DNA of 64,000 bases from Nocardioides lacusdianchii (GTDB lineage Bacteria; Actinomycetota; Actinomycetes; Propionibacteriales; Nocardioidaceae): NCBI RefSeq assembly GCF_020102855.1, contig NZ_JADHZD010000008.1, forward strand, positions 124,001 to 188,000, written 5' to 3'. This document shows, piece after piece, positions 1,746-41,339 of this stretch. Position 1 is the stretch's first letter. The number at the start of each line of letters is the position of its first letter. The notes under the pieces are model-generated. The model saw only the letters and a program-made list of their open reading frames with translations, was not told where the DNA came from and did not search any database. A program made the translations under genes and the position numbers.

Positions 1746-2434
1746 ACGACAGCCCGACCGACTACACGGGGGACGTCTCCCCCGGCGGCGCACCCGACGT
1801 ACGCCGTGCCGGGTGCCTGACGGTGACCAAGGTCGCGGTCGATTCGGACATGTCCAACAACTGCTACCTCCTGCACTGCAGCGAGACCGACGAGCGCGTC
1901 CTCGTCGACGCCGCGGCGGAGCCCGAGCGGCTGCTCGAGCTCATCGGCGACGGTCCGCTGACCTCGATCGTCACCACCCACCAGCACTGGGACCACCACC
2001 GCGCGCTGGCCGCGGTGAAGGCGGCCCACCCGGGGGCCACGGTCGTCGCCGGCGCCCCCGACGCGGAAGCGATCGAGGAGCAGACCGGCGTGAGCGTCGA
2101 CCGGCGCGTCGGCGCGGGCGACAAGGTCGCGGTCGGCACGTGCGACCTCCACGTCATCCCGCTCACCGGCCACACCCCGGGCTCGATCGCGCTGCTCCTC
2201 GACGACGAGGCGGTGTCGCCGCACCCCCACCTCTTCACCGGGGACTCGCTCTTCCCGGGCGGTCCGGGCCGGACGACGAGCCCGGAGGACTTCACCTCGC
2301 TGATGGACGACCTCGAGGAGAAGGTCTTCGGCCGGCTGCCCGATAACACGTGGTTCTACCCCGGCCACGGCAACGACTCGACCCTCGGCGCGGAGCGTGG
2401 CTCGCTGGCCGAGTGGCGCGCCCGCGGTTGGTGA
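1739..2434 (+). CDS. Metallo-beta-lactamase fold hydrolase (glyoxalase II-like)
   Basis: A 231-residue MBL-fold hydrolase with all dinuclear-zinc ligands visible in order: THQHWDHH (HxHxDH), the GHTPGS histidine, the GDSLF aspartate and the PGHG histidine near the C-terminus. This arrangement is that of glyoxalase II and related thioester or thiol-conjugate hydrolases. The ATG (1739-1741) overlaps the end of the mycothiol-dependent isomerase-like gene, so the two are probably translated together. A role on a mycothiol thioester is an attractive inference, but nothing in the sequence fixes the substrate. GTG 1742 is an alternative start. Confidence 0.88.
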   Translation: MVNDSPTDYTGDVSPGGAPDVRRAGCLTVTKVAVDSDMSNNCYLLHCSETDERVLVDAAAEPERLLELIGDGPLTSIVTTHQHWDHHRALAAVKAAHPGATVVAGAPDAEAIEEQTGVSVDRRVGAGDKVAVGTCDLHVIPLTGHTPGSIALLLDDEAVSPHPHLFTGDSLFPGGPGRTTSPEDFTSLMDDLEEKVFGRLPDNTWFYPGHGNDSTLGAERGSLAEWRARGW

Positions 2435-2494
2435 CCCCCGCCACCTCTGCGCCGACGACGTGAGTCCGCGGCGTCGTCGTGGCAGGCTGGACGC

Positions 2495-3175
2495 ATGAGC
2501 ACCCGTGAGCTGACCCTGGCCGACTTCGAGCAGACCGTGAGCGGTGAGGGCATCGTCCTCGTCGACTTCTGGGCTGCCTGGTGCGGACCGTGCCGGCAGT
2601 TCGCACCGGTCTACGAGAAGGCGTCCGAGGACAACCCCGACATCGTCTTCGGCAAGGTCGACACCGAGGCCGAGCAGCAGCTCGCCCAGATGGCGGCCAT
2701 CACCTCCATCCCTACCCTGATGCTCTTCCGCGACGGCGTCCTGCTCTTCAACCAGGCCGGCGCCCTGCCGCCGCAGGCGCTCGCCGGCGTGATCGAGCAG
2801 GCCCGCGAGCTCGACATGGACGCCGTACGCCAGGAGGTGCAGGCCGCGCAGGAGGCAGCTGCCAATGGCCCCCAGGACGAGATCGGCCTCGACGAGTTCG
2901 CCGCCGCGCACAGCCAGGGTGCGTACGTCGTCGACGTGCGCGAGGCCGACGAGGTGGCCGGCGGGCGCGTCCCCGGCGCCGTGCACATCCCGATGAACGA
3001 CGTCCCGAACCGGGTCGCGGAGCTGCCGCAGGACCAGCCCGTCTTCGTGATCTGCCAGTCCGGTGGCCGCAGCCGTCAGGTCGTCGACCACCTGCGCGCC
3101 CAGGGCGTGCCCGCCTTCAACGTCGTGGGCGGCACCGGCGGCTGGGCGCAGCGCGGCTGGCCGCTCGAGGCCTGA
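2495..3175 (+). CDS. Thioredoxin-rhodanese two-domain protein
   Basis: A 226-residue cytoplasmic protein with two complete domains. Residues 1-110 are thioredoxin (DFWAAWCGPCRQF active site, cis-proline at SIPTLMLF). Residues about 130-226 are a rhodanese domain with the catalytic cysteine in CQSGGRSRQV and the usual VDVREADEVAGGRVPGA entrance. Rhodanese domains carry persulfide sulfur and thioredoxin can reduce it, so a role in sulfane-sulfur handling or redox repair is plausible but inferred. The ATG lies 6 bases after a CAGGCT -10 element, implying a leaderless mRNA. No signal peptide is visible. Confidence 0.92.
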   Translation: MSTRELTLADFEQTVSGEGIVLVDFWAAWCGPCRQFAPVYEKASEDNPDIVFGKVDTEAEQQLAQMAAITSIPTLMLFRDGVLLFNQAGALPPQALAGVIEQARELDMDAVRQEVQAAQEAAANGPQDEIGLDEFAAAHSQGAYVVDVREADEVAGGRVPGAVHIPMNDVPNRVAELPQDQPVFVICQSGGRSRQVVDHLRAQGVPAFNVVGGTGGWAQRGWPLEA

Positions 3176-7757: not shown

Positions 7758-8293
7758 GGTGGTCGAGTAGCCGAGCGAGGAACGAGTGAGGCGTATCGAG
7801 ACCAGCTCGGTCAAGGGGTCTCGATACGCCGCTCGCTGGCGCTCGCGAGCTACTCGACCACCGATGACGGGCCACTCGGTGGTCGAGTAGCCGAGCGGTC
7901 ACTTCCCCTTCGGTGGTCGAGTAGCCGAGCGAGGGACGAGTGAGGCGTATCGAGACCCAGCTCGGTCGAGGCGTCTCGATACGCCGCTCGCTGGCGCTCG
8001 CGAGCTACTCGACCACCGATGACGGGCCACTCGGTGGTCGAGTAGCCGAGCGGTCACTTCCCCTTCGGTGGTCGAGTAGCCGAGCAAGGAACGAGTGAGG
8101 CGTATCGAGACCCAGCTCGGCCGACGCGTCTCGATACGCCGCTCGCTGGCGCTCGCGAGCTACTCGACCACCAATGACTGGCCACTCGGTGGTCGAGTAG
8201 CCGAGCGAGGAACGAGTGAGGCGTATCGAGACCCAGCTCGGCCGAGGCGTCTCGATACGCCGCTCGCTGGCGCTCGCGAGCTACTCGACCACC
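7758..8293. repeat. Array of four 105-106-bp palindromic repeats plus two half units
   Basis: Four nearly identical units at 7758-7862, 7912-8017, 8067-8172 and 8188-8293 each begin GGTGGTCGAGTAGCC and end GCTACTCGACCACC, so each is an imperfect inverted repeat with arms of about 48 bases (inner arms GCGTATCGAGAC and GTCTCGATACGC). Truncated left arms at 7878 and 8033, each followed by GGTCACTTCCCCTTC, precede units 2 and 3, giving a higher-order period of about 154 bases. Variation between units is limited to a few bases. The array fills the gap between two convergent genes. It could fold into long hairpins and act as a bidirectional terminator or REP-like element. There is no gene here. Confidence 0.95.
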
Positions 8294-8300
8294 GACGCCC

Positions 8301-9191
8301 TCAGCCCATAGACGCGATCAGCTGTCGCACCGTACGCAGCCCCAGCTGCGACATGTGCGACGCGGTGTCGCGGTAGTAGGTCCAGCCGCTGATCGCGGGC
8401 GCGAGCGCGAAGCCACGCGCGCGGCGGTAGGCCGCGTCGTCGAGACCGACGGTCTCCCGGTAGAGCCCCGCCACGGAAGGAGGCAGCGAGCCCCACATCG
8501 CGTTGAGCTCGATCGCCGGGTCGCCGCGTCCGGCGCAGCCCCAGTCGATCACCGCGGCGAGAGCGCCGTCGCGCACGAGCAGGTTGCCCTCGTGGAGGTC
8601 GCCGTGGAACCAGCGCGGCTCGCCGTCGTACGCCGGTGCGGCCAGCGCGTCGTCCCAGACAGCGAGCACCGCGTCGCGCGAGACCTCGGTGGGGTCGGCG
8701 CGGGCGGTCCACCGACGGACCCACTCGTCCATCGCGGCGAGCGGTCCCCCGCGCCCATCGGTCGTCACCGGCCCGTCGAGCGCCGGCACCTCGCGGCACG
8801 CCCGCACGAAGGAGCCGAGCGACACCGCCCACTCCTCGGGGTCGTACGTCGCCGGCGTGGGCGTCGCCCCCTCGATCCACGGCACCACGGTCCAGGGGAA
8901 CGGGTAGCCCTCCCCCGGCTCGCCGAGGGCGACGGGCGCGGGGATCGGCAGCGGCAGGTGGGGCGCGACGAGCGGCAGCCAGGTGTGCTCGAAGGCGACG
9001 GTTTCCGCGGGCCCGGGAATCCTCGGCAGCCGCACGAGGAGGTCGTCGCCGAGGCGGCAGAGCTGGTTGTCCGTCCCGACCGGAGGCAGCCGTCGCAGCG
9101 GCAGGTCGGCCCACTGCGGGTGCTGCGCCGCCAGGAGACGGCGTACGACTCCCTCGTCGACGAGCACCTCGTCGTCATGCATCCCGGTCAT
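8301..9191 (-). CDS. Aminoglycoside phosphotransferase family (APH-like) kinase
   Basis: A 296-residue kinase-like protein of the APH/choline-kinase fold. The Brenner motif HGDLHEGNLLV contains the catalytic Asp and Asn, and IDWGCAGRGDPAIELN is the metal-binding DFG-equivalent. The N-lobe region LLVRLPRIPG carries the likely nucleotide-binding beta strands. Members phosphorylate antibiotics, sugars or other small alcohols; this one cannot be assigned a substrate and should not be taken as a resistance gene. The start at 9191 follows TACTGT by 8 bases; ATG 9182 is an alternative. Its 3' end abuts the palindromic array. Confidence 0.85.
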   Translation of the reverse strand: MTGMHDDEVLVDEGVVRRLLAAQHPQWADLPLRRLPPVGTDNQLCRLGDDLLVRLPRIPGPAETVAFEHTWLPLVAPHLPLPIPAPVALGEPGEGYPFPWTVVPWIEGATPTPATYDPEEWAVSLGSFVRACREVPALDGPVTTDGRGGPLAAMDEWVRRWTARADPTEVSRDAVLAVWDDALAAPAYDGEPRWFHGDLHEGNLLVRDGALAAVIDWGCAGRGDPAIELNAMWGSLPPSVAGLYRETVGLDDAAYRRARGFALAPAISGWTYYRDTASHMSQLGLRTVRQLIASMG

Positions 9192-9228
9192 CGGACAGGA
9201 CAGTAGTACCGGCCAGTAGATTGAGCAG

Positions 9229-10530
9229 GTGAGTTTCCTGCTGCGCCAAGGCGTCGTCGCCGCCCTGACCGCCAACGCCCTGCGTCCCAGCCGCGGTCGC
9301 CGCTCCGGCCTCGGCTCGTTCCTCGCCGGGTTCCTCTTCAACGAGGCCGCGCCCCAGGTGCTCGCGGTGACGGCGCTCGACGCCGCCACGCACCTGACCG
9401 CCGGGCGCCGGTCGGGGTTCCGGGCGAAGGCCGGACTCGCACTGGCCGGCGCGAGCGCGCTGGGCCTCGCGAAGGTGGTGCGCCAGAGCCGCAGGTCGGC
9501 CGACCGCTTCGAGGACGCGCTCGTCGAGGGCCTCGGCGTCGACTACGTCGAGCAGCTCGACGCCGTGCCCGACCCGGCGGACCTGGCCACGGCGTGGCGC
9601 CGACTGGCCCGCCCCTTCAACTTCGCCGACGAGGGCGTGCGTGTGATCAGCGACGTCCCCTACACCGAGGCCGGAAAGCGCGGGCACCTCGACATCTACC
9701 TCCCGGCCGGTGAGGACGCGATCAAGGACGCCCCGGTCCTGCTCCAGGTCCACGGCGGCGCGTGGACCGTTGGCGCCAAGGAGCACCAGGCCCGCCCGCT
9801 GATGAACCACATGGCGGCTCGCGGCTGGGTCTGCGTCGCGATCAACTACCGCCTCGCCCCGCGCGACGCCTGGCCCGCGCACATCGTCGACGTCAAGCGC
9901 GCGATCGCGTGGGTGCGCGAGCACATCGCCGACTACGGCGGCGACCCCGACTACCTCGCCATCACCGGCGGCTCCGCAGGCGGCCACCTCGCCGCGCTGG
10001 CCGCGCTGACCCCTGGCGACCCGGCCTTCCAGCCCGGTTTCGAGGACGCCGACACGAGCGTCCGGGCCGCGGTCCCCTTCTACGGCGTCTACGACTTCGC
10101 CGGCTCGACCGGGCTGACGAACGCGATCGGGATGCGCGACGCCTTCCTCGGCCCGCGCGTCATGCAGACGACGTGGACCGACTCCCCCGACGTCTACGAG
10201 GCCGCCTCCCCCATCCTGCGGATCACGCCGGACGCCCCCGACTTCTTCGTCATCCACGGCGACCTCGACTCCCTCGTGGCCGTGGACCAGGCGCGGCTCT
10301 TCGTCGCCGAGCTGCGGCGCACGTCGCGCAAGTCGGTGGTCTACGCCGAGCTGCCCGGGGCGCAGCACGCCTTCGACGTCTACCACTCGATCCGCAGCAC
10401 GTACGCCGTGCGCGCGGTCGACCGCTACCTCTCCTGGCACTGGAACACCTGGCGCCACGGCCTCGACGCGGACAGCGGCGTCGAACCCGGCGACCTCGAC
10501 GGCGACGCCCGCACCGACCGGAGCGCCTAG
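9229..10530 (+). CDS. Alpha/beta hydrolase (HSL/carboxylesterase-like)
   Basis: A 433-residue protein. After an N-terminal hydrophobic region of about 130 residues unlike standard esterases comes a hormone-sensitive-lipase-type hydrolase domain. LLQVHGGAWTVG is the oxyanion HGG motif, ITGGSAGGHLAAL the nucleophile elbow with Ser, FFVIHGDLDSLVA holds the acid, and PGAQHAFDVYHS the catalytic His. It likely hydrolyses short-chain or lipid esters, perhaps membrane-attached through the N-terminus. GTG 9229 is 6 bases after TAGATT. The next gene starts at the base after the stop codon, so the two are co-transcribed. Confidence 0.88.
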   Translation: MSFLLRQGVVAALTANALRPSRGRRSGLGSFLAGFLFNEAAPQVLAVTALDAATHLTAGRRSGFRAKAGLALAGASALGLAKVVRQSRRSADRFEDALVEGLGVDYVEQLDAVPDPADLATAWRRLARPFNFADEGVRVISDVPYTEAGKRGHLDIYLPAGEDAIKDAPVLLQVHGGAWTVGAKEHQARPLMNHMAARGWVCVAINYRLAPRDAWPAHIVDVKRAIAWVREHIADYGGDPDYLAITGGSAGGHLAALAALTPGDPAFQPGFEDADTSVRAAVPFYGVYDFAGSTGLTNAIGMRDAFLGPRVMQTTWTDSPDVYEAASPILRITPDAPDFFVIHGDLDSLVAVDQARLFVAELRRTSRKSVVYAELPGAQHAFDVYHSIRSTYAVRAVDRYLSWHWNTWRHGLDADSGVEPGDLDGDARTDRSA

Positions 10531-12245
<1,715 letters not shown>

Positions 12246-36010: not shown

Positions 36011-36567
36011 CAGAGACTCCGGCGGCCTGCCGGGAGCACCGACGTCGCCGCGTGGAGCACCGCCGCGCTGACCATGCCCATCAGGTGTCCGATCGAGCGG
36101 ACGTACACCGGGGTCACCGGTCCACCGTGCCAGAGCAGTCGGTCGGGTGGAGCGGGGGCGTGGGGATGGTCGACATGCGTGTCTCCGGTGGTTCTCGAAC
36201 GTGCCGGCCCGTTGTCTCGAGCCTGAGTGCTGCTCCCCCGTACCCCTTGGCGCTACGCGCATGTCGGGACGAGATGTGGGCTACACCTCACGCGCCAGCG
36301 ACCGTCCCGGGAGCGTGCGGACGGCGGGCATGACTCCACGGACCTCCGCCGTGCTGAGCGGGTGCGTCGGTGCGAGCCCTCACCGCGAGGTGACGTGCGA
36401 TCGCAGCCCTTCAGCAGCGATAAGACGCACTCGTCGCGGCAGATCCGGACGTCTCGCGCCACACGGAACCGGCGGTGATGCTGGCTTCATTGTTGATGCT
36501 GATTGCAACCTGGGCGGCCCCCGTGGGGCTATAAGTGGGCAGAGGGTCTACCAACGGCAGGAGGGAT
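36011..36567. other. Intergenic stretch at the left edge of the lower-GC segment
   Basis: No convincing gene is seen on either strand; short open frames here have Arg-rich shadow composition and no start signals. GC falls towards the right end, where GGCTATAAGTGG holds a TATAAG -10-like box (36530-36535), 32 bases before the ECF sigma factor start, with GCAACC at 36505-36510 as a possible upstream element. This appears to be the transition from chromosomal backbone into accessory DNA. Confidence 0.5.
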
Positions 36568-37056
36568 ATGAGCAACTCAGAGAGTTTCGATGCCTTCTAC
36601 GCCGCGCGGGCCCCGAGACTGGTGCGCAACATCTACCTGCGCACAGGCGACGCCACACGTGCGGAGGACTCCGTGCAGGAAGCATTCGTGCGGGCCTGGC
36701 GCAGGTGGGATCGGTTGGAGAATGACGATCCGGTGGGGTGGGTGACCACGGTGGCGTGGAGGCTAGCCATTCGGGATTGGCGGCGCACCCTGCGAGAAGC
36801 CGCAGCGCGGCTGGGCCTGGAGGCGAGGTCACGCGAGCACATCCGCCCGCCGGATGAGTTACTGCACCTGCACCAAGCGTTGGCCAAGTTGACCCCAGCG
36901 CAACGCGATGTCCTGGTCCTGCACTACTTCGAGGACATGCCTGTGCGGGATGTCTCGGCGCTCCTTGGTATGCCCGAAGGGACGGTCAAGTCCCACCTCT
37001 CTCGGGGCCGCGATGCGCTGCGTGAAGCGTTTGCTCTAGGAGGGGCAACCACATGA
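36568..37056 (+). CDS. ECF RNA polymerase sigma factor, SigE family
   Basis: A 162-residue ECF sigma factor. Region 2 (FDAFYAARAPRLVRNIYLRTGD, then AEDSVQEAFVRAWRRWDRL) recognises the -10 element; region 4 (LTPAQRDVLVLHYFEDMPVRDVSALLGMPEGTVKSHLSRGRDAL) is a helix-turn-helix for the -35. The ATG follows a GGAGGG site. Its stop overlaps the next gene (ATGA), which encodes a membrane protein of anti-sigma plan. GC is lower than the chromosome around it, suggesting transfer. Target genes are unknown; its own operon is the usual first candidate. Confidence 0.92.
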   Translation: MSNSESFDAFYAARAPRLVRNIYLRTGDATRAEDSVQEAFVRAWRRWDRLENDDPVGWVTTVAWRLAIRDWRRTLREAAARLGLEARSREHIRPPDELLHLHQALAKLTPAQRDVLVLHYFEDMPVRDVSALLGMPEGTVKSHLSRGRDALREAFALGGATT

Positions 37057-37730
37057 ACGATCTTGACCTGCTAGAGAGTGCCCGCGACACGCGCTGGGAG
37101 CACGACCTGCTCACTCCGCACGAGGTCCGCGCACGTGGCAACCGGCGCACACGGGTCCGCCGTGCCTCAGGCGCTGCCGCCGCCTTGGTGTCCATCGCCA
37201 TCGTCTATGCCGTGGTTGGACCCATAAACAATCGCAATCCCGATCAGGTAGCCACCGACGTCCCGTTCAACGCGGAGAACCTCAACGGAGCAGAGTTCGA
37301 CCTTCCGCCCGGCTGGGCGGTTCTCAACCGGCCATCTGTGAGCCAGGTATGCGTCGGCGATGCCACCGAACCCGGCACCAGTTGCCCCGTCCTCATGGCC
37401 GTCGCGAATGACCCGCAGACGGCGCTGGAGAACGGACTGGACGTCGTAGCCGACCTGATGAGTACCTGCCAAGCCGACGACCCGCAGTTCGTCGAGGTTA
37501 CGCACGACACGCCGGGCACCAGCACGTATTCGGGTCGATGCACAGCCAGTAGCCCCGTCATGACGGCCTGGTCCTACGACAACCGCACCCTGTACGTCCT
37601 CGCCACCGAAGTGCGCTGGCGGTCCGACGCTGCGGACATCTTCGACACCATCACCGTGCCTAGTTACTGGCCGCAGGCCCCGGCCGCGACCGAGTCCGCG
37701 ACCGCTGGTCCGTCCACGGTCAACGAGTAG
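37053..37730 (+). CDS. Probable membrane anti-sigma partner of the ECF factor
   Basis: A 225-residue protein with a cytoplasmic N-terminus of about 38 basic residues (LTPHEVRARGNRRTRVRRAS), one transmembrane helix (GAAAALVSIAIVYAVVG) and an extracytoplasmic domain of about 165 residues with cysteines in QVCVG, TSCPV, STCQA and GRCTA. It starts within the stop codon of the sigma gene. This is the layout of SigE-type anti-sigma or sensor partners, although no zinc-binding HxxxCxxC motif is visible in the short N-terminus. The role is inferred from position and topology. Confidence 0.65.
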   Translation: MNDLDLLESARDTRWEHDLLTPHEVRARGNRRTRVRRASGAAAALVSIAIVYAVVGPINNRNPDQVATDVPFNAENLNGAEFDLPPGWAVLNRPSVSQVCVGDATEPGTSCPVLMAVANDPQTALENGLDVVADLMSTCQADDPQFVEVTHDTPGTSTYSGRCTASSPVMTAWSYDNRTLYVLATEVRWRSDAADIFDTITVPSYWPQAPAATESATAGPSTVNE

Positions 37731-37915
37731 ACAGCGCTATGCCCAGGCACCCACGGCCTGCCACATCGCGGCCGATCCGGGCGAGCGTAGCCGCCCTCAA
37801 CGCGGCAAGTCAGGACACGCATCCGAAGTTGGCCCACCGATCGCCCAGTGCGCCGAGTCTTCGCCGGAAGCCTGATGTTCGCGGTGTGGCGGGTGACGCG
37901 TTACTCGTGACCTAC

Positions 37916-38152: not shown

Positions 38153-38410
38153 GCGTAGTGGTCCTTCTTTGCCGAAGTTCAGATGGTCTGCGGCTTTAGT
38201 GGACTAACCGTCGGTTGGTGCCACGAGTTTCGCCGCACCGGGATCGTTGCAGTCCGATGAAGCCTTCAGCGCTACCGACACGCGGGCTTCGGTCGTGCTG
38301 GAGCGTCGGGACGTTAAAGCGATCCGCCACATGACGCGGGGTGTTACGAAGTAGCCGACTACGAGGCAACTGGGCTGAGGACCATCCGCATCTCGGCTAC
38401 TAAGAGACTT

Positions 38411-38587
38411 CCCGCAGGATCGGGGTCTGGCCAGACTTCGATCTAGGTGATCGGCGGGACGCTCTCTTATCGGCTGCCCACCATCTGCGGTGTGGCTCTC
38501 ATCTGGACTGCGACCTGCCGACCACCGTGACGAGGAGTGGCTCCAGAGGGGTTTGCCCAGCTCGTAGTAGCAATGCCCACCTCGTCG
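38411..38587 (+). ncRNA. Predicted IS110 bridge RNA
   Basis: Three stem-loops in the order described for IS621. First, a 5' stem-loop at 38418-38443 (GATCG/CGATC and GTCTGG/CCAGAC). Second, a target-binding loop closed by 38453-38462 with 38510-38519 (GGCGGG-A-CGC with GCG-A-CCTGCC); its internal loop holds TCGGCT (38470-38475) on the 5' side and ATCTGG (38501-38506) on the 3' side, capped by a hairpin at about 38480-38493. Third, a donor-binding loop closed by GACGAG plus GTGG (38529-38540) with CCAC plus CTCGTC (38577-38586), holding CAGAGGGGT (38544-38552) and CTCGTAGTAGC (38561-38571). The guides match the flanks and the element ends. Exact RNA ends are guesses. Confidence 0.65.
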
Positions 38588-38616
38588 TCCATTGGCACCA
38601 GCCACAAGACGAGGTG
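38578..38616 (+). promoter_or_regulatory. Hairpin able to hide the transposase ribosome-binding site
   Basis: CACCTCGTC (38578-38586) is perfectly complementary to GACGAGGTG (38608-38616), which contains the GAGGTG ribosome-binding site of the transposase, 5 bases before its ATG. The same CACCTCGTC forms the 3' arm of the donor-binding stem of the predicted bridge RNA, so the two pairings exclude each other. Confidence 0.55.
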
Positions 38617-38621
38617 AGCAG

Positions 38622-39821
38622 ATGAGCAACACGAAGAAGGGCGTGATCATCGGGGTCGATCCCCACAAGATGTCGGTGACGAACGAGGTCGTCGACACCC
38701 ACGAGCAGCTGCTCGGCACAGGTCGGTTCGACACCACCAACACCGGTTACGCCGAAATGCGCCGGTATGTGAAGCAGTGGCCTGAGCGCCTCTGGGCTGT
38801 CGAGGGAGCCAACGGCGTCGGCCGGCCGCTGGCCCAACGTCTGGTCGCCGCCGGCGAACACGTGGTCGACGTCCCAGCGAAGCTCGCGGCGCGGGTGCGG
38901 CTCTTCGACACCGGCCACAACCGTAAGACCGACGCGCTGGACGCCCACTCCATCGCGGCTGTCGCCGTGCGCACCGAAGGGTTGCGGGTGGTGGCCGATG
39001 ACGGTGAGCTCGAAGCGCTGCGGATGCTCACCGACCGCCGCGACGAGCTCGCCCACCAACGGGTCCAGACCGTCAACCGGCTGCAACGTCTACTGAGCGA
39101 ACTGCTGCCTGGCCAGCGCAAACGCGACCTGTCAGCCACCCAGGCCAAGACCATGCTCGCAACAGTGCGGCCCCGAGACATCGCCGGCAAGACCCGCCGT
39201 CGGATGGCAGCCGAGGAGATCACCGACCTGGTCGCGGTCGACGCGAAGCTGAAGAAGATCAAGGCCGAACTGAAGGCAGCAGTCGTCGAACGCGGTTCAA
39301 CGTTGATGGACCTCTACGGCGTCGGACCAGCCGGCGCTGCGCGGGTCCTGGCCGACGTCGGTGACGTGGCCCGGTTCGCCGACCGCAACCGGTTTGCGTC
39401 CTGGACCGGGACCGCACCCCTGGACGCCTCCTCGGGGGAGCAGACCCGCCACCGCTTGTCGCGGGCTGGGAACCGGCGGATGAACCACGTCCTTCACGTC
39501 GCCGCGGTCGTGCAGATCCGCCACGACACCGAGGGCCGCGCCTACTACCGGCGCAAGCTCGCCGCGGGCAAGACCCCGATGGAAGCACTGCGGTGCCTCA
39601 AGCGACGTCTGTCCGACGTCGTCTACCGCCAGCTCGTCGCGGACGCCCAGCTGCGGGATGGAGCGGGTCCGGGAGGGCACTGCGGGGCGACTCTTCAATC
39701 CAGCGCGGCCGACTCGCACCCGCTCATCGACACTTCGGATCAGCCACTTCCCGGACCCGCGCAGCCGACGCTACGCCGACGACCAGCCGGTCGGAAGACC
39801 CTCACTCCAGCCGCTCCTTGA
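38622..39821 (+). CDS. IS110-family transposase (DEDD recombinase)
   Basis: A 399-residue recombinase of normal family length. The N-terminal RuvC-like domain gives GVIIGVDPHK (first Asp), LWAVEGANGVG (Glu) and HNRKTDALDAHSIA (two Asp), i.e. the DEDD set. A coiled-coil linker follows (LKKIKAELKAAVVERG). The C-terminal domain contains the GVGPAGAARVLADVG hairpin and WTGTAPLDASSGEQTRHRLSRAGNRRMN, which holds the catalytic Ser. It cuts and rejoins DNA at sites chosen by the element's RNA. ATG 38622 follows GAGGTG. The frame is intact, so the element may be active. Confidence 0.95.
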   Translation: MSNTKKGVIIGVDPHKMSVTNEVVDTHEQLLGTGRFDTTNTGYAEMRRYVKQWPERLWAVEGANGVGRPLAQRLVAAGEHVVDVPAKLAARVRLFDTGHNRKTDALDAHSIAAVAVRTEGLRVVADDGELEALRMLTDRRDELAHQRVQTVNRLQRLLSELLPGQRKRDLSATQAKTMLATVRPRDIAGKTRRRMAAEEITDLVAVDAKLKKIKAELKAAVVERGSTLMDLYGVGPAGAARVLADVGDVARFADRNRFASWTGTAPLDASSGEQTRHRLSRAGNRRMNHVLHVAAVVQIRHDTEGRAYYRRKLAAGKTPMEALRCLKRRLSDVVYRQLVADAQLRDGAGPGGHCGATLQSSAADSHPLIDTSDQPLPGPAQPTLRRRPAGRKTLTPAAP

Positions 39822-40106
39822 CACAGAGGGGTACCAGATCCGGTTGTCCCCGACAAGCGGCGGTTTGACGCACCATGTGACGAGACCCCACTCACCAACC
39901 CGCGAGAGCTCTTGGCGCCCATGGCCCCTCAATAGGTATCGCCTCGCGGCCGCCGGGCATCACCGACCCCACACCGAGGAGGAGGGCCTAGCACCTGGCG
40001 CGCGCACTGCCTACAGTGCAATTGGGTCACGCGGCGGCCCCTTCATCACCGCGATCTTGGACGCGACCGGCCCGTCGGCTTGGCACCTGACTACAAGGAG
40101 AATCTC

Positions 40107-41186
40107 ATGCCGCTGCAGAACGACTTCTACACACCCGAGGGCCAGGGAGCCTACGAGCTGATCTCGATCGGCCGCTTCGAGTTGGAAGAGGGTGGGGTGA
40201 TCGAGGATCTTCGGTTGGCTGTGGCGACGTACGGCACCCTCAACGAGGACAAGTCCAACGCAATCTGCATTCCGACGTGGTTCTCAGGGACCCATGCCAC
40301 CTGGGAGCAGGTCTACATCGGTTCGGGGCGGGCCCTGGACCCCGACAAGTACTTCATCGCGGTCATCAATCAGATCGGCAATGGCCTTTCGACTTCACCG
40401 CACAACACCGAGGACCCATCGATCGCGATGTCGAAGTTCCCTCATGTGCGCATCGGCGACGACGTCCGCGCACAGGAGCAACTGCTGCGCGAACACTTCG
40501 GCATCGAACGACTTGCGCTTGTAGTGGGCGGTTCCATGGGCGCTCAGCAGACCTACGAGTGGGCGGTTCGGTTCCCCGACAAGGTGCTGCGTGCAGCTCC
40601 CATCGCAGGTACGGCCCAGAACCTGCCGCACGACTTCCTCTACACCCAGACCTTGATGGACGCGATCACGTCAGATCCTGCCTGGAACGGTGGGGAGTAC
40701 GCCGCGAATACCGACGTGGCTGCTGGGTTGCGGCGCCATGCCGACATCTGGGCGGTCATGGGACTGACCACGGACTTCTGGAAGACGGAGTTCTGGAGGG
40801 ACATCACTCCCTTGGTGGAAGGCGTCGGGTGGGAGACGTTCGAGGAGTTCCAGCAGAACTTCACCGCGCTCATCTTCGGCATGATGGACCCCAACGCGCT
40901 GCTGTCGATGGGCTGGAAGTGGCAACGCGGGGACGTGGCGCGCAACACCAACGGGGACCTCGCAGCTGCGCTCGGCAGCATCACCGCCAAGACGTTCGTG
41001 ATGCCGATCGAGCAGGACATGTTCTTCCCACCCCGCGACTGCATCCCCGAGCAGGAGATGATCCCGGGCGCCGAACTCAGAATGCTGCACAGCATCGCCG
41101 GTCACTTCGGGCTGTTCGGCTTCGAGCCCTCCTACACCGCCGAGGTGGACGCCGCGCTCTCAGACCTGCTGGCCATCGAGGTTTAG
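40107..41186 (+). CDS. MetX-like alpha/beta-hydrolase (homoserine acetyltransferase family)
   Basis: A 359-residue protein of the homoserine O-acetyltransferase superfamily. VVGGSMGAQQTYEWAVRFPD is the nucleophile elbow with Ser, PIEQDMFFPPRD holds the acid and SIAGHFGLFGFEPS the His. True MetX enzymes usually show GGSMGGMQ; here it is GGSMGAQQ, and the N-terminal region is shorter, so another acyl transfer or hydrolysis reaction is likely. ATG 40107 is preceded by AAGGAG. A TACAGT -10 candidate lies at 40012-40017. It belongs to the lower-GC segment next to the IS110 element and was probably acquired with it. Confidence 0.82.
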   Translation: MPLQNDFYTPEGQGAYELISIGRFELEEGGVIEDLRLAVATYGTLNEDKSNAICIPTWFSGTHATWEQVYIGSGRALDPDKYFIAVINQIGNGLSTSPHNTEDPSIAMSKFPHVRIGDDVRAQEQLLREHFGIERLALVVGGSMGAQQTYEWAVRFPDKVLRAAPIAGTAQNLPHDFLYTQTLMDAITSDPAWNGGEYAANTDVAAGLRRHADIWAVMGLTTDFWKTEFWRDITPLVEGVGWETFEEFQQNFTALIFGMMDPNALLSMGWKWQRGDVARNTNGDLAAALGSITAKTFVMPIEQDMFFPPRDCIPEQEMIPGAELRMLHSIAGHFGLFGFEPSYTAEVDAALSDLLAIEV

Positions 41187-41339
41187 AAGTTCAGTCTCGA
41201 GCGTTGCGATCCGCCTGTGCCGAATCATGGATTTGCGTCGGCGGCTGTGGGCTCACGCCATCCGCCCACACGACACATGCCGCCGTACAACTTGTCAGTT
41301 GGGGCCGTTTCAGGGCGCGCCGGCAGGCGGCGAACTGCC

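What the first reader, a model, noticed from the sequence alone, without database searches (positions are those of the whole stretch)
38398..39834. IS110 element with a bridge RNA whose four guides match its own ends and its own target site
Seen: the region before the transposase folds into three stem-loops. The middle one (closed by 38453-38462 with 38510-38519) holds TCGGCT on one side and ATCTGG on the other. The left flank ends TCGGC followed by TAC (38393-38400), so TCGGCT matches flank plus first core base. The right flank with the last core base reads CCAGAT (39834-39839), the reverse complement of ATCTGG. The third loop holds CAGAGGGGT, identical to the right element end (39824-39832), and CTCGTAGTAGC, complementary at 8 of 9 positions to core plus left end (38398-38406), 10 of 11 counting two flank bases. 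Guide order and strand sense are those established for IS110/IS621 bridge RNAs. Inference: this RNA programs the element, the core is TAC or TA, and the ends are 38398 and 39834. The guide set appears undescribed.
Basis: partly seen in the sequence, partly recalled or inferred. Interest (0 to 1): 0.88.

Follow-up and report, generated by a model that had tools for sequence, protein, structure and literature searches.

The report
Jumping gene aimed at cassette sites
A small bacterial jumping gene carries an RNA that appears to steer it into the joint where another, integron-like gene-shuffling system cuts and pastes genes, and relatives of the element carry different RNA guides matched to a second such joint.

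Summary
Window 38398-39835 is an IS110-group insertion sequence in a Nocardioides-like genome, with a predicted 5' bridge RNA (38411-38592) and an open transposase gene (38622-39821). RNA stems show compensatory changes (54 copies). Both target guides co-vary with the flanks and the donor guides with the element ends (64-77 copies). The "TAC/TA core" is wrong: of 66 copies with a readable right end only this one reads TAC; most read (A/T)GC. One C is shared by both ends; the base beside it differs between donor and target.

The larger result is what the guides address. The target CGGC|AGAT is the repeated site of what looks like an undescribed integron-like cassette system. One array has 17 sites in 6 kb around a tyrosine recombinase gene. 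Close recombinases (8 of 8) have the site 69-93 bp upstream. Homologous units elsewhere tend to end at the sites (12 of 26 merged end positions within 20 nt, 1.48 expected). A second guide group matches a second site type, found upstream of a second recombinase class. The element is a bridge-RNA IS110 with a new kind of target; the cassette systems may be the more novel part. Mobility and RNA function are inferred, not shown.

The parts
38390..38397 (+). left half of the target (type-A cassette site), ...TCGGC
   Evidence: direct reading; LTG matches TCGGC; uninterrupted sites CGGCAGATCCGG in L131
38398..39835 (+). IS110-group element, 1438 bp (38397-39834 is equivalent: one C shared by both ends)
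   Evidence: junctions compared with relatives and with uninterrupted sites at other places
38411..38592 (+). predicted bridge RNA (exact ends unknown)
   Evidence: fold, compensatory changes, covariance model hit
38418..38443 (+). 5' stem-loop of the bridge RNA
   Evidence: helix 1, 94.9% of cells paired
38446..38526 (+). target-binding stem-loop
   Evidence: helices 2 and 3
38468..38475 (+). left target guide TATCGGCT (TCGGC used)
   Evidence: co-varies with the left flank: the two variable positions next to GGC match 68 and 69 of 74, shuffled 38.2 and 47.0
38500..38506 (+). right target guide CATCTGG; the last G fits the donor base (C), not the target base (G)
   Evidence: positions 2-5 match 58, 51, 50, 51 of 64, shuffled 31.5, 35.2, 34.4, 28.0
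38529..38586 (+). donor-binding stem-loop
   Evidence: helix 4; pair 38530-38585 is not conserved: 38 of 54 unpaired
38544..38552 (+). left donor guide CAGAGGGGT, same as right end 39824-39832
   Evidence: the last guide letter equals the right-end letter in 56 of 66 copies, about 37.5 expected from the letter frequencies (my tally)
38561..38571 (+). right donor guide CTCGTAGTAGC, pairs with GC+TACTA(A/C)GAG
   Evidence: changes with the left end: GTAGCAGC with TGCTAG (4 of 4), GTCGTAGC with TACGTA (3 of 3); 8 of 77 copies have a changed guide without a changed end
38622..39821 (+). IS110 transposase gene, 399 aa; D13, E61, D104, D107 and S271 align with IS621 D11, E60, D102, D105, S241
   Evidence: Pfam DEDD_Tnp_IS110 1.7e-23 and Transposase_20 9.5e-23; alignment to 8wt6 (the stretch with S271 is strong, 9e-9, the one with D, E, D, D is weak on its own, i-Evalue 3.3); positions; residue pairing counted by eye with an inferred chain offset of 2
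39818..39823 (+). TTGACA in the right end; possible -35 box completed on circularisation (inference; it overlaps the stop codon)
   Evidence: sequence; present in most but not all right ends listed
39836..39843 (+). right half of the target, AGATCCGG
   Evidence: direct reading; RTG matches AGAT
36437..36447 (+). uninterrupted type-A site CGGCAGATCCG in the window
37764..37800 (+). degenerate type-A site / 34-bp repeat
39859..39871 (+). type-B site GGCGGTTTGACGC, near the start of the right-hand unit
39850..41332 (+). cassette-like unit with a MetX-like gene (my naming from the sequence, not tested); ends with GCCGGCAGGCGGCG
   Evidence: 98.2% copy in G147 over 39850-41332; copy on another contig of the same genome over 39834-41196 (96.6%) and 41279-41338

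Best explanation
This is an IS110-group insertion sequence that works as IS621 does: a DEDD/Ser recombinase uses its left-end bridge RNA to join its own circularised ends to a guide-matched target. Its target guides are set to TCGGC|AGAT, the conserved centre of the recombination site of a tyrosine-recombinase gene-cassette system in Nocardioides. It therefore inserts at the point where cassettes are joined. A sister guide group is set to GCGGC|GG(A/T)ATGACGC, the site of a second recombinase class. Shown by sequence: element, RNA structure, guide-flank and guide-end co-variation, identity of the targets with repeated sites found upstream of recombinase genes, and unit boundaries at those sites. 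Inferred: RNA expression, transposition, and that the recombinases move the units.
For: IS110 transposase. RNA stems with compensatory changes and a covariance-model hit from the other group. Guides co-vary with flanks and ends. Letters beyond the guided bases differ by guide group: CCG follows in 17 of 25 group-A flanks and 0 of 40 group-B; GACGC in 19 of 40 group-B and 0 of 25 group-A. Site array: 17 CGGCAGAT in 6 kb of L131, shuffled mean 0.26, around a tyrosine recombinase gene. Type-A site 69-93 bp upstream in 8 of 8 recombinases at least 80% identical to that of L131; type-B motif (12 or more of 15 letters) upstream in 17 of 28 class-B and 0 of 15 of a third class. Homology ends of units lie within 20 nt of a site in 21 of 30 chosen ends, 1.75 expected, and in 12 of 26 merged end positions, 1.48 expected, after adding 45 hits first left out. 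Examples read base by base.
Against: No orthologous empty site was found in the held loci and no circle or tandem junction of the group-A form in 215 genomes. Twelve recombinases of 68-77% identity have no same-strand site within 300 bp, and 11 of 28 class-B ones lack the motif, among them the window genome's own (L199). The sites also occur in genomes without a close recombinase: 49 of 59 genomes hold YCGGCAGATCCGG. The broad type-B pattern is only about threefold above its reversed control (161 against 56 matches, my sums). Eight of 77 copies have a changed right donor guide without a changed end. Fold energy of the RNA alone is weak. Shuffles ignore relatedness.
Confidence: 0.82

Rival explanations
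1. Ordinary IS110 with a bridge RNA whose target is simply a dispersed REP-like repeat, as for IS621; the repeats have no link with a recombinase.
For: Sites are dispersed in 49 of 59 and 55 of 59 genomes sampled, some in 34-bp tandem arrays, also without a close recombinase. IS621 insertions in REP elements are discussed in PMC11208160 (passages).
Against: Sites at a narrow range of distances upstream of two recombinase classes, a dense array around one recombinase, and unit boundaries at the sites. Targets as a set are not palindromic beyond chance: mean 7.77 against 7.41.
Confidence: 0.15
2. Target choice is made by the protein, and the guide-like matches are by-products of shared ancestry of elements and sites.
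For: Closely related elements share guides and flanks, so part of the co-variation is inherited; the central GG hardly varies and is uninformative.
Against: The match is sequence identity on one strand and complement on the other, at both loops. Guide and flank or end switch together, including rare switches of the left end.
Confidence: 0.04
3. The units between sites are moved by homologous recombination between repeats or by the IS110 recombinase itself, not by the tyrosine recombinase.
For: Bridge recombinases can excise and invert DNA (PMC11208160 abstract), and an IS110 copy or remnant lies within about 8 kb of a recombinase gene in three genomes (G000, G200, G035).
Against: The covariance model found no bridge RNA in L131 and the places listed include no IS110 of that genome, yet the array has 17 sites; each of 8 close recombinases has its own upstream site.
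Confidence: 0.12

Closest known systems
IS621 (IS110 group) and its bridge RNA (PMC11208160, PMC11208158; passages seen)
   Same: DEDD + Ser transposase; RNA in the long left end; 5' stem-loop, target loop, donor loop; guide order and strand sense; a right-guide end base that fits the other DNA, as in handshake pairing
   Different: Different guides and target; IS621 has a CT core in both donor and target, here only one C is shared; IS621 inserts in REP elements, here at the joint of cassette sites
IS1111-attC group, e.g. ISKpn4, ISPst6 (passages of PMC11187229; Tetu and Holmes 2008 seen only as a reference title there; the paper itself is not held)
   Same: RNA-guided IS of the IS110/IS1111 superfamily that inserts into gene-cassette recombination sites
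   Different: There the non-coding region is downstream of tnp and the target is attC of integrons; here it is upstream and the sites belong to non-IntI recombinases in Actinomycetota
Integrons (IntegronFinder 2.0 paper PMC9024848, passages seen)
   Same: Tyrosine recombinase gene with a site just upstream, array of small units each with a site
   Different: Recombinase far below the IntI cut-off (53.6 against 265 bits); no attC model was run on the sites; that survey found no complete integron in Actinobacteria (one In0, a few CALIN)
Xer modules of Acinetobacter (start of the abstract of PMC7399989 in a listing)
   Same: Genes flanked by simple tyrosine-recombinase sites
   Different: Those use host XerC/XerD; here a dedicated recombinase appears to have its own upstream site

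Membership tests
IS110 group (bridge-RNA elements) | DEDD (RuvC-like) plus Transposase_20 domains | tested here: met
   Pfam both above cut-off
IS110 group (bridge-RNA elements) | Catalytic D, E, D, D and Ser | tested here: met
   aligned with IS621 8wt6 (strong for Ser, weak stretch of i-Evalue 3.3 for D, E, D, D); chain numbering offset of 2 inferred; positions
IS110 group (bridge-RNA elements) | Structured RNA in a long left end, upstream of tnp | tested here: met
IS110 group (bridge-RNA elements) | Target guides match the flanks | tested here: met
IS110 group (bridge-RNA elements) | Donor guides match the element's ends | tested here: met
   seven joint switches of right donor guide and left end, eight guide changes without one; last letter of left donor guide fits in 56 of 66
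IS110 group (bridge-RNA elements) | Shared core dinucleotide | tested here: inconclusive
   only one C is shared by left and right junctions; the neighbouring base differs between donor and target
IS110 group (bridge-RNA elements) | Circular intermediate, expressed RNA bound by the protein | not testable with these tools
   a group-A junction pattern is absent in 215 genomes, as expected of a transient form
IS1111-attC group | Non-coding RNA region downstream of tnp | tested here: not met
   RNA lies upstream
IS1111-attC group | Sub-terminal inverted repeats | not tested
   no dedicated search made
Integron (for the cassette system) | IntI integrase | tested here: not met
   TIGR02249 53.6 bits, cut-off 265
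Integron (for the cassette system) | Site just upstream of the recombinase gene (attI-like) | tested here: met
   8 of 8 close class-A recombinases and 17 of 28 class-B; not in 12 of 68-77% identity
Integron (for the cassette system) | attC structure | not tested
   no attC model was run
Integron (for the cassette system) | Array of small units each with a recombination site, mobile as units | tested here: inconclusive
   array and boundaries fit; recombination itself not tested

The most novel reading that the evidence does not exclude
Nocardioides and relatives carry at least two undescribed integron-like gene-cassette systems with non-IntI tyrosine recombinases and their own att sites. A lineage of IS110 elements parasitises them by re-programming its bridge RNA to whichever crossover sequence is present, so the bridge-RNA guides are a natural record of the recombinases' exchange points.
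Probability: 0.6. Interest if true: 0.82.

Novelty: new variant of a known kind. Interest (0 to 1): 0.64.

Why it matters
For bridge RNAs it gives a natural series of re-programmed guides (77 copies read, two main target classes) with co-variation at the target guides and at the donor guides. It also offers a testable case of a core that is not identical in donor and target. For genome plasticity it points to a cassette-shuffling system in Actinomycetota, where a survey found no complete integron (PMC9024848, passages), and it gives recombinase, upstream site and cassette boundaries to test. To my knowledge it would be a second case, after the IS1111-attC group, of RNA-guided IS homing in on cassette sites.

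Tried and rejected
Core TAC/TA: rejected because relatives have (A/T)GC at the right end. Targets as a set of palindromes (REP or terminator): rejected as a general rule, mean inverted-repeat score 7.77 against 7.41 in shuffles. L004 as an empty site of this insertion: rejected; it shares only the right-hand unit, and its upstream looks to me like a decayed right end. Orthologous empty site by blasting flanks against the loci held then: none. Circle or tandem junction of the group-A form in the genus: 0 of 215 genomes. Rfam: only a tRNA in the window at gathering threshold. AlphaFold model without alignment: mean pLDDT 48, not used. Relationship to true integrons by IntI profile: cut-off not met. 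Literature: IS110 with Nocardioides, integron with Nocardioides, integron-like Actinobacteria cassettes, IS1111/attC/IS110, dif/XerC cassettes, integron/Actinomycetota/attC, integron-like/actinomycete, cassettes/Nocardioides/recombinase. In the listings I saw no description of the cassette system or of this guide set; of the listed papers I looked into five, by outline or passages only.

Rows dropped before counts. One search skipped 7 of 114 loci (no usable 5' region) and 17 with an identical 5' region; the resulting 90 sequences were the window plus 89 loci (L001, the window's own copy, was replaced by the window). One search dropped 13 of 90 for an unreadable guide or left end, among them L024, whose left end reads CCCTAG although its donor guide is of the GTAGCAGC type; 11 more had no readable right end (77 and 66 left; 74 and 64 after removing repeats). 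The structure counts used 54 of those sequences after a 95% similarity filter and one pattern failure. One search used 16 hits of at least 80% identity that I picked. It left out self, IS110 hits and 45 listed hits at the query's left edge, but kept one such hit (G050, query 1-557). With those 45 added, 21 of 75 ends lie within 20 nt of a site (3.83 expected), and 12 of 26 after merging ends within 15 nt (1.48 expected). Unlisted matches were not seen.
Full report
What was checked. The ORF 38622-39821 (399 aa) matches Pfam DEDD_Tnp_IS110 (1.7e-23) and Transposase_20 (9.5e-23). It aligns with the IS621 transposase structure 8wt6. D13, E61, D104, D107 and S271 fall on the IS621 active-site residues D11, E60, D102, D105 and S241 named in PMC11208158 (passages). 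The stretch with the serine is strong (9e-9); the one with the four acidic residues is weak on its own (i-Evalue 3.3). The window lies in a 4.5 Mb, 50-contig genome. Of the first ten named relatives listed, nine are Nocardioides and one is an actinomycetote MAG (L007-L016); the genus of the window itself is inferred from these.

Relatives. A scan of one genome per species gave 80 loci (the best 80 of 92), 66-93% identical in protein over the best segment. A DNA search of 215 genomes of the genus gave more copies. I aligned the 5' regions of 90 copies, the window included, and read guides, flanks and ends in 77 of them.

RNA. Alone, the window RNA folds into the three stem-loops with z only -2.0. 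Across 54 sequences, 94.9% of 2212 cells pair, 10 of 41 pairs change on both sides (46 cells), and none of 500 shuffles and no slid register reaches this. Some pairs are not general: 38530-38585 pairs in only 16 of 54, and 38460-38512 in 27 of 54. RNAalifold on its own finds 12 of 49 pairs with double changes. A covariance model of 28 relatives with other guides finds the window at 38445-38586, 140.9 bits, E 1.9e-27.

Guides. With 74 distinct left flanks, the two variable positions of the left target guide next to GGC match in 68 and 69 of 74 (shuffled 38.2 and 47.0). The three positions further out match in 40, 39 and 26 (shuffled 25.8, 28.9, 15.8). With 64 right flanks, positions 2-5 of the right target guide match in 58, 51, 50 and 51 (shuffled 31.5, 35.2, 34.4, 28.0); positions 6 and 7 match less often than shuffled (5 and 3 of 64, against 9.2 and 5.9), so I take the right guide as five bases. 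The right donor guide changes with the left end: GTAGCAGC goes with TGCTAG in 4 of 4, and GTCGTAGC with TACGTA in 3 of 3; against this, 8 of 77 copies have a changed guide and an unchanged end. The last letter of the left donor guide equals the right-end letter in 56 of 66 copies, about 37.5 expected from the letter frequencies (my tally). These tests do not remove relatedness.

Ends and core. At the left end 73 of 77 copies read TAC and 4 TGC. At the right end, of 66 readable copies, 44 read AGC, 16 TGC, 3 AAC, 2 GGC and 1 (this one) TAC. The patterns used for reading allowed only such forms; every candidate right end that was found fitted them. Uninterrupted sites read CGCGGC|AGATCCGG, for instance in the tandem repeats beside the copies L003, L011 and L014. 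One C is therefore shared; the inserted segment is 1438 bp. The base left of that C is G in 72 of 77 left junctions (C in 4, A in 1) and C in all 66 readable right junctions (required by the pattern). The last base of the right target guide (G) fits the donor C, and the last base of the right donor guide (C) fits the target G. That is the crossed pairing called handshake pairing in PMC11208158. The four left junctions with C there look like donor letters carried over (inference). Whether the core is (G/C)C or C(A/T) cannot be decided here.

What the target is. Group A (right guide reading AGAT and near variants) inserts at (T/G)CGGC|AGATCCGG, and group B (GGAA, GATA, GAAA...) at GCGGC or TGGGC|GG(A/T)ATGACGC; these are the commonest forms, not the only ones. 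Letters beyond the guides also separate the groups: CCG follows in 17 of 25 against 0 of 40, and GACGC in 19 of 40 against 0 of 25. YCGGCAGATCCGG occurs in 49 of 59 genomes sampled, 124 matches against 4 for the reversed control (my sums). The broader type-B pattern occurs in 55 of 59, but only 161 matches against 56 in the control (my sums). In one genome (L131) CGGCAGAT occurs 17 times in 6 kb (shuffled mean 0.26, maximum 2), between small ORFs and around a tyrosine recombinase gene, 2165-3091. That protein is Phage_integrase (1.2e-22), XerC/D-like, but below the cut-off of each of the ten NCBIfam families listed, integron integrase included (53.6 against 265 bits). Of nine other ORFs scanned, seven have no Pfam family; a DUF4279 protein and a glyoxalase are the exceptions.

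Recombinases and their sites. The recombinase has matches at E 1e-40 in 56 of 215 genomes, and the window's own genome has two. One of these, 85% identical, lies about 8 kb from an IS110 3' remnant. All 8 examined recombinases at least 80% identical have a type-A site 69-93 bp upstream on the same strand (starts are projected from the alignment). None of 12 at 68-77% does (4 have one on the other strand). For the more distant class (32-39% identity), the complement of the type-B site (12 or more of 15 letters) lies upstream in 17 of 28, at -99 to -118 except one at -157; the window genome's own class-B gene (L199) lacks it. In a third class (43-47%) it is in 0 of 15. In 509 control windows from the same loci, type A occurs in 31 and type B in 9.

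Cassette behaviour. The unit right of the IS (39850-41332) recurs at 98.2% in another genome, among unrelated neighbours; homology starts 9 bp before GGCGGTTTGACGC and stops with GCCGGCAGGCGGCG. A second copy on another contig of this genome (39834-41196 at 96.6%, then 41279-41338) starts 25 bp before that motif, lacks 82 bp, and stops 6 bp after the same right-hand motif. Two units of L131 recur in other genomes with homology ending at CGGC or CGGCAGAT. In one of them, against G127, the right-hand break falls between CGGC and AGAT, the same joint that the IS110 splits. Over 16 chosen hits, 21 of 30 free ends lie within 20 nt of a site (1.75 expected). Adding 45 left-out hits of a conserved stretch at the query's edge gives 21 of 75 (3.83 expected), and merging ends within 15 nt gives 12 of 26 (1.48 expected). 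The unit 36489-37732 of the window (a sigma factor gene by my reading) recurs at 83% in another genome, but its ends lie 30-50 bp from the sites.

How it most likely works. Steps 1-4 are inferred by homology with IS621. (1) The ends join in a circle; TTGACA in the right end may serve as -35. (2) The left-end RNA is transcribed and bound. (3) The donor loop holds the joined ends and the target loop holds TCGGC|AGAT. (4) Strands are exchanged beside the shared C. The new element of the story is that this target is the cassette joint. Insertion should inactivate that site, and the IS would gain a target that is frequent and spread between genomes with cassettes.

Limits. No transcript, circle, empty orthologous site or recombination product was seen. 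Genomes of the G set are unnamed and many are drafts. Residue correspondences with IS621 rest on one pairwise alignment. Literature searches cover open-licence PMC papers only, and papers were seen as passages.

Verdict. As an element it meets the features of the IS110 bridge-RNA group that could be tested, with a non-identical core as the open point. As a target class it is a new variant, and the cassette systems it points to deserve separate study.

Noticed in passing
L131 1-6600 (G028:C16): Dense array of small ORFs separated by CGGCAGAT sites around an XerC/D-like tyrosine recombinase: candidate integron-like cassette array.
   Followed up: partly
L132, L164, L166, L187-L206: A second recombinase class, 17 of 28 of which (five of L222-L226 counted in the 28 where they fall in the class) have GCGTCATTCCGCCGC-like sequence 99-118 bp upstream (one at 157): a second site type, the target of the other IS110 guide group.
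   Followed up: partly
L211, L213-L215, L217-L221: A third recombinase class (43-47%); these nine of 15 share a different upstream motif, roughly CCGTCATTACGTCA...CGTGACGAAAGACG; possibly a third system.
   Followed up: no
L021 2163-2255: A copy of the IS 5' end is broken exactly in the left target guide (TATCGGC), directly followed by a full IS: the element may have inserted into its own guide DNA, whose left half equals the target.
   Followed up: partly
L044 and L034, right junctions: Right end is followed by CTACTA or CTACT instead of the guided target, i.e. the tip of a left end: possible scar or donor-junction remnant.
   Followed up: no
L157 about 8212-11982 (G200:C34): An IS110 copy sits about 1.2 kb from the upstream site of a class-A recombinase, i.e. 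beside it in what may be a cassette array.
   Followed up: partly
G000:C3 (L156 6033-8202) and L014 right flank: 34-bp tandem repeats GCGGCAGATCCGGGCG(A/G)GCGTAGCCGCCC(T/G)CAAC built from the type-A site; function unknown.
   Followed up: no
L013 4756-4900: A different IS110 (about 68% DNA identity) next to the first also carries a bridge RNA by the covariance model (E 1.1e-16).
   Followed up: no
G035:C1:641351-644275: A more distant IS110 (67%) lies 0.7 kb from a tyrosine recombinase gene with an internal TAG.
   Followed up: no
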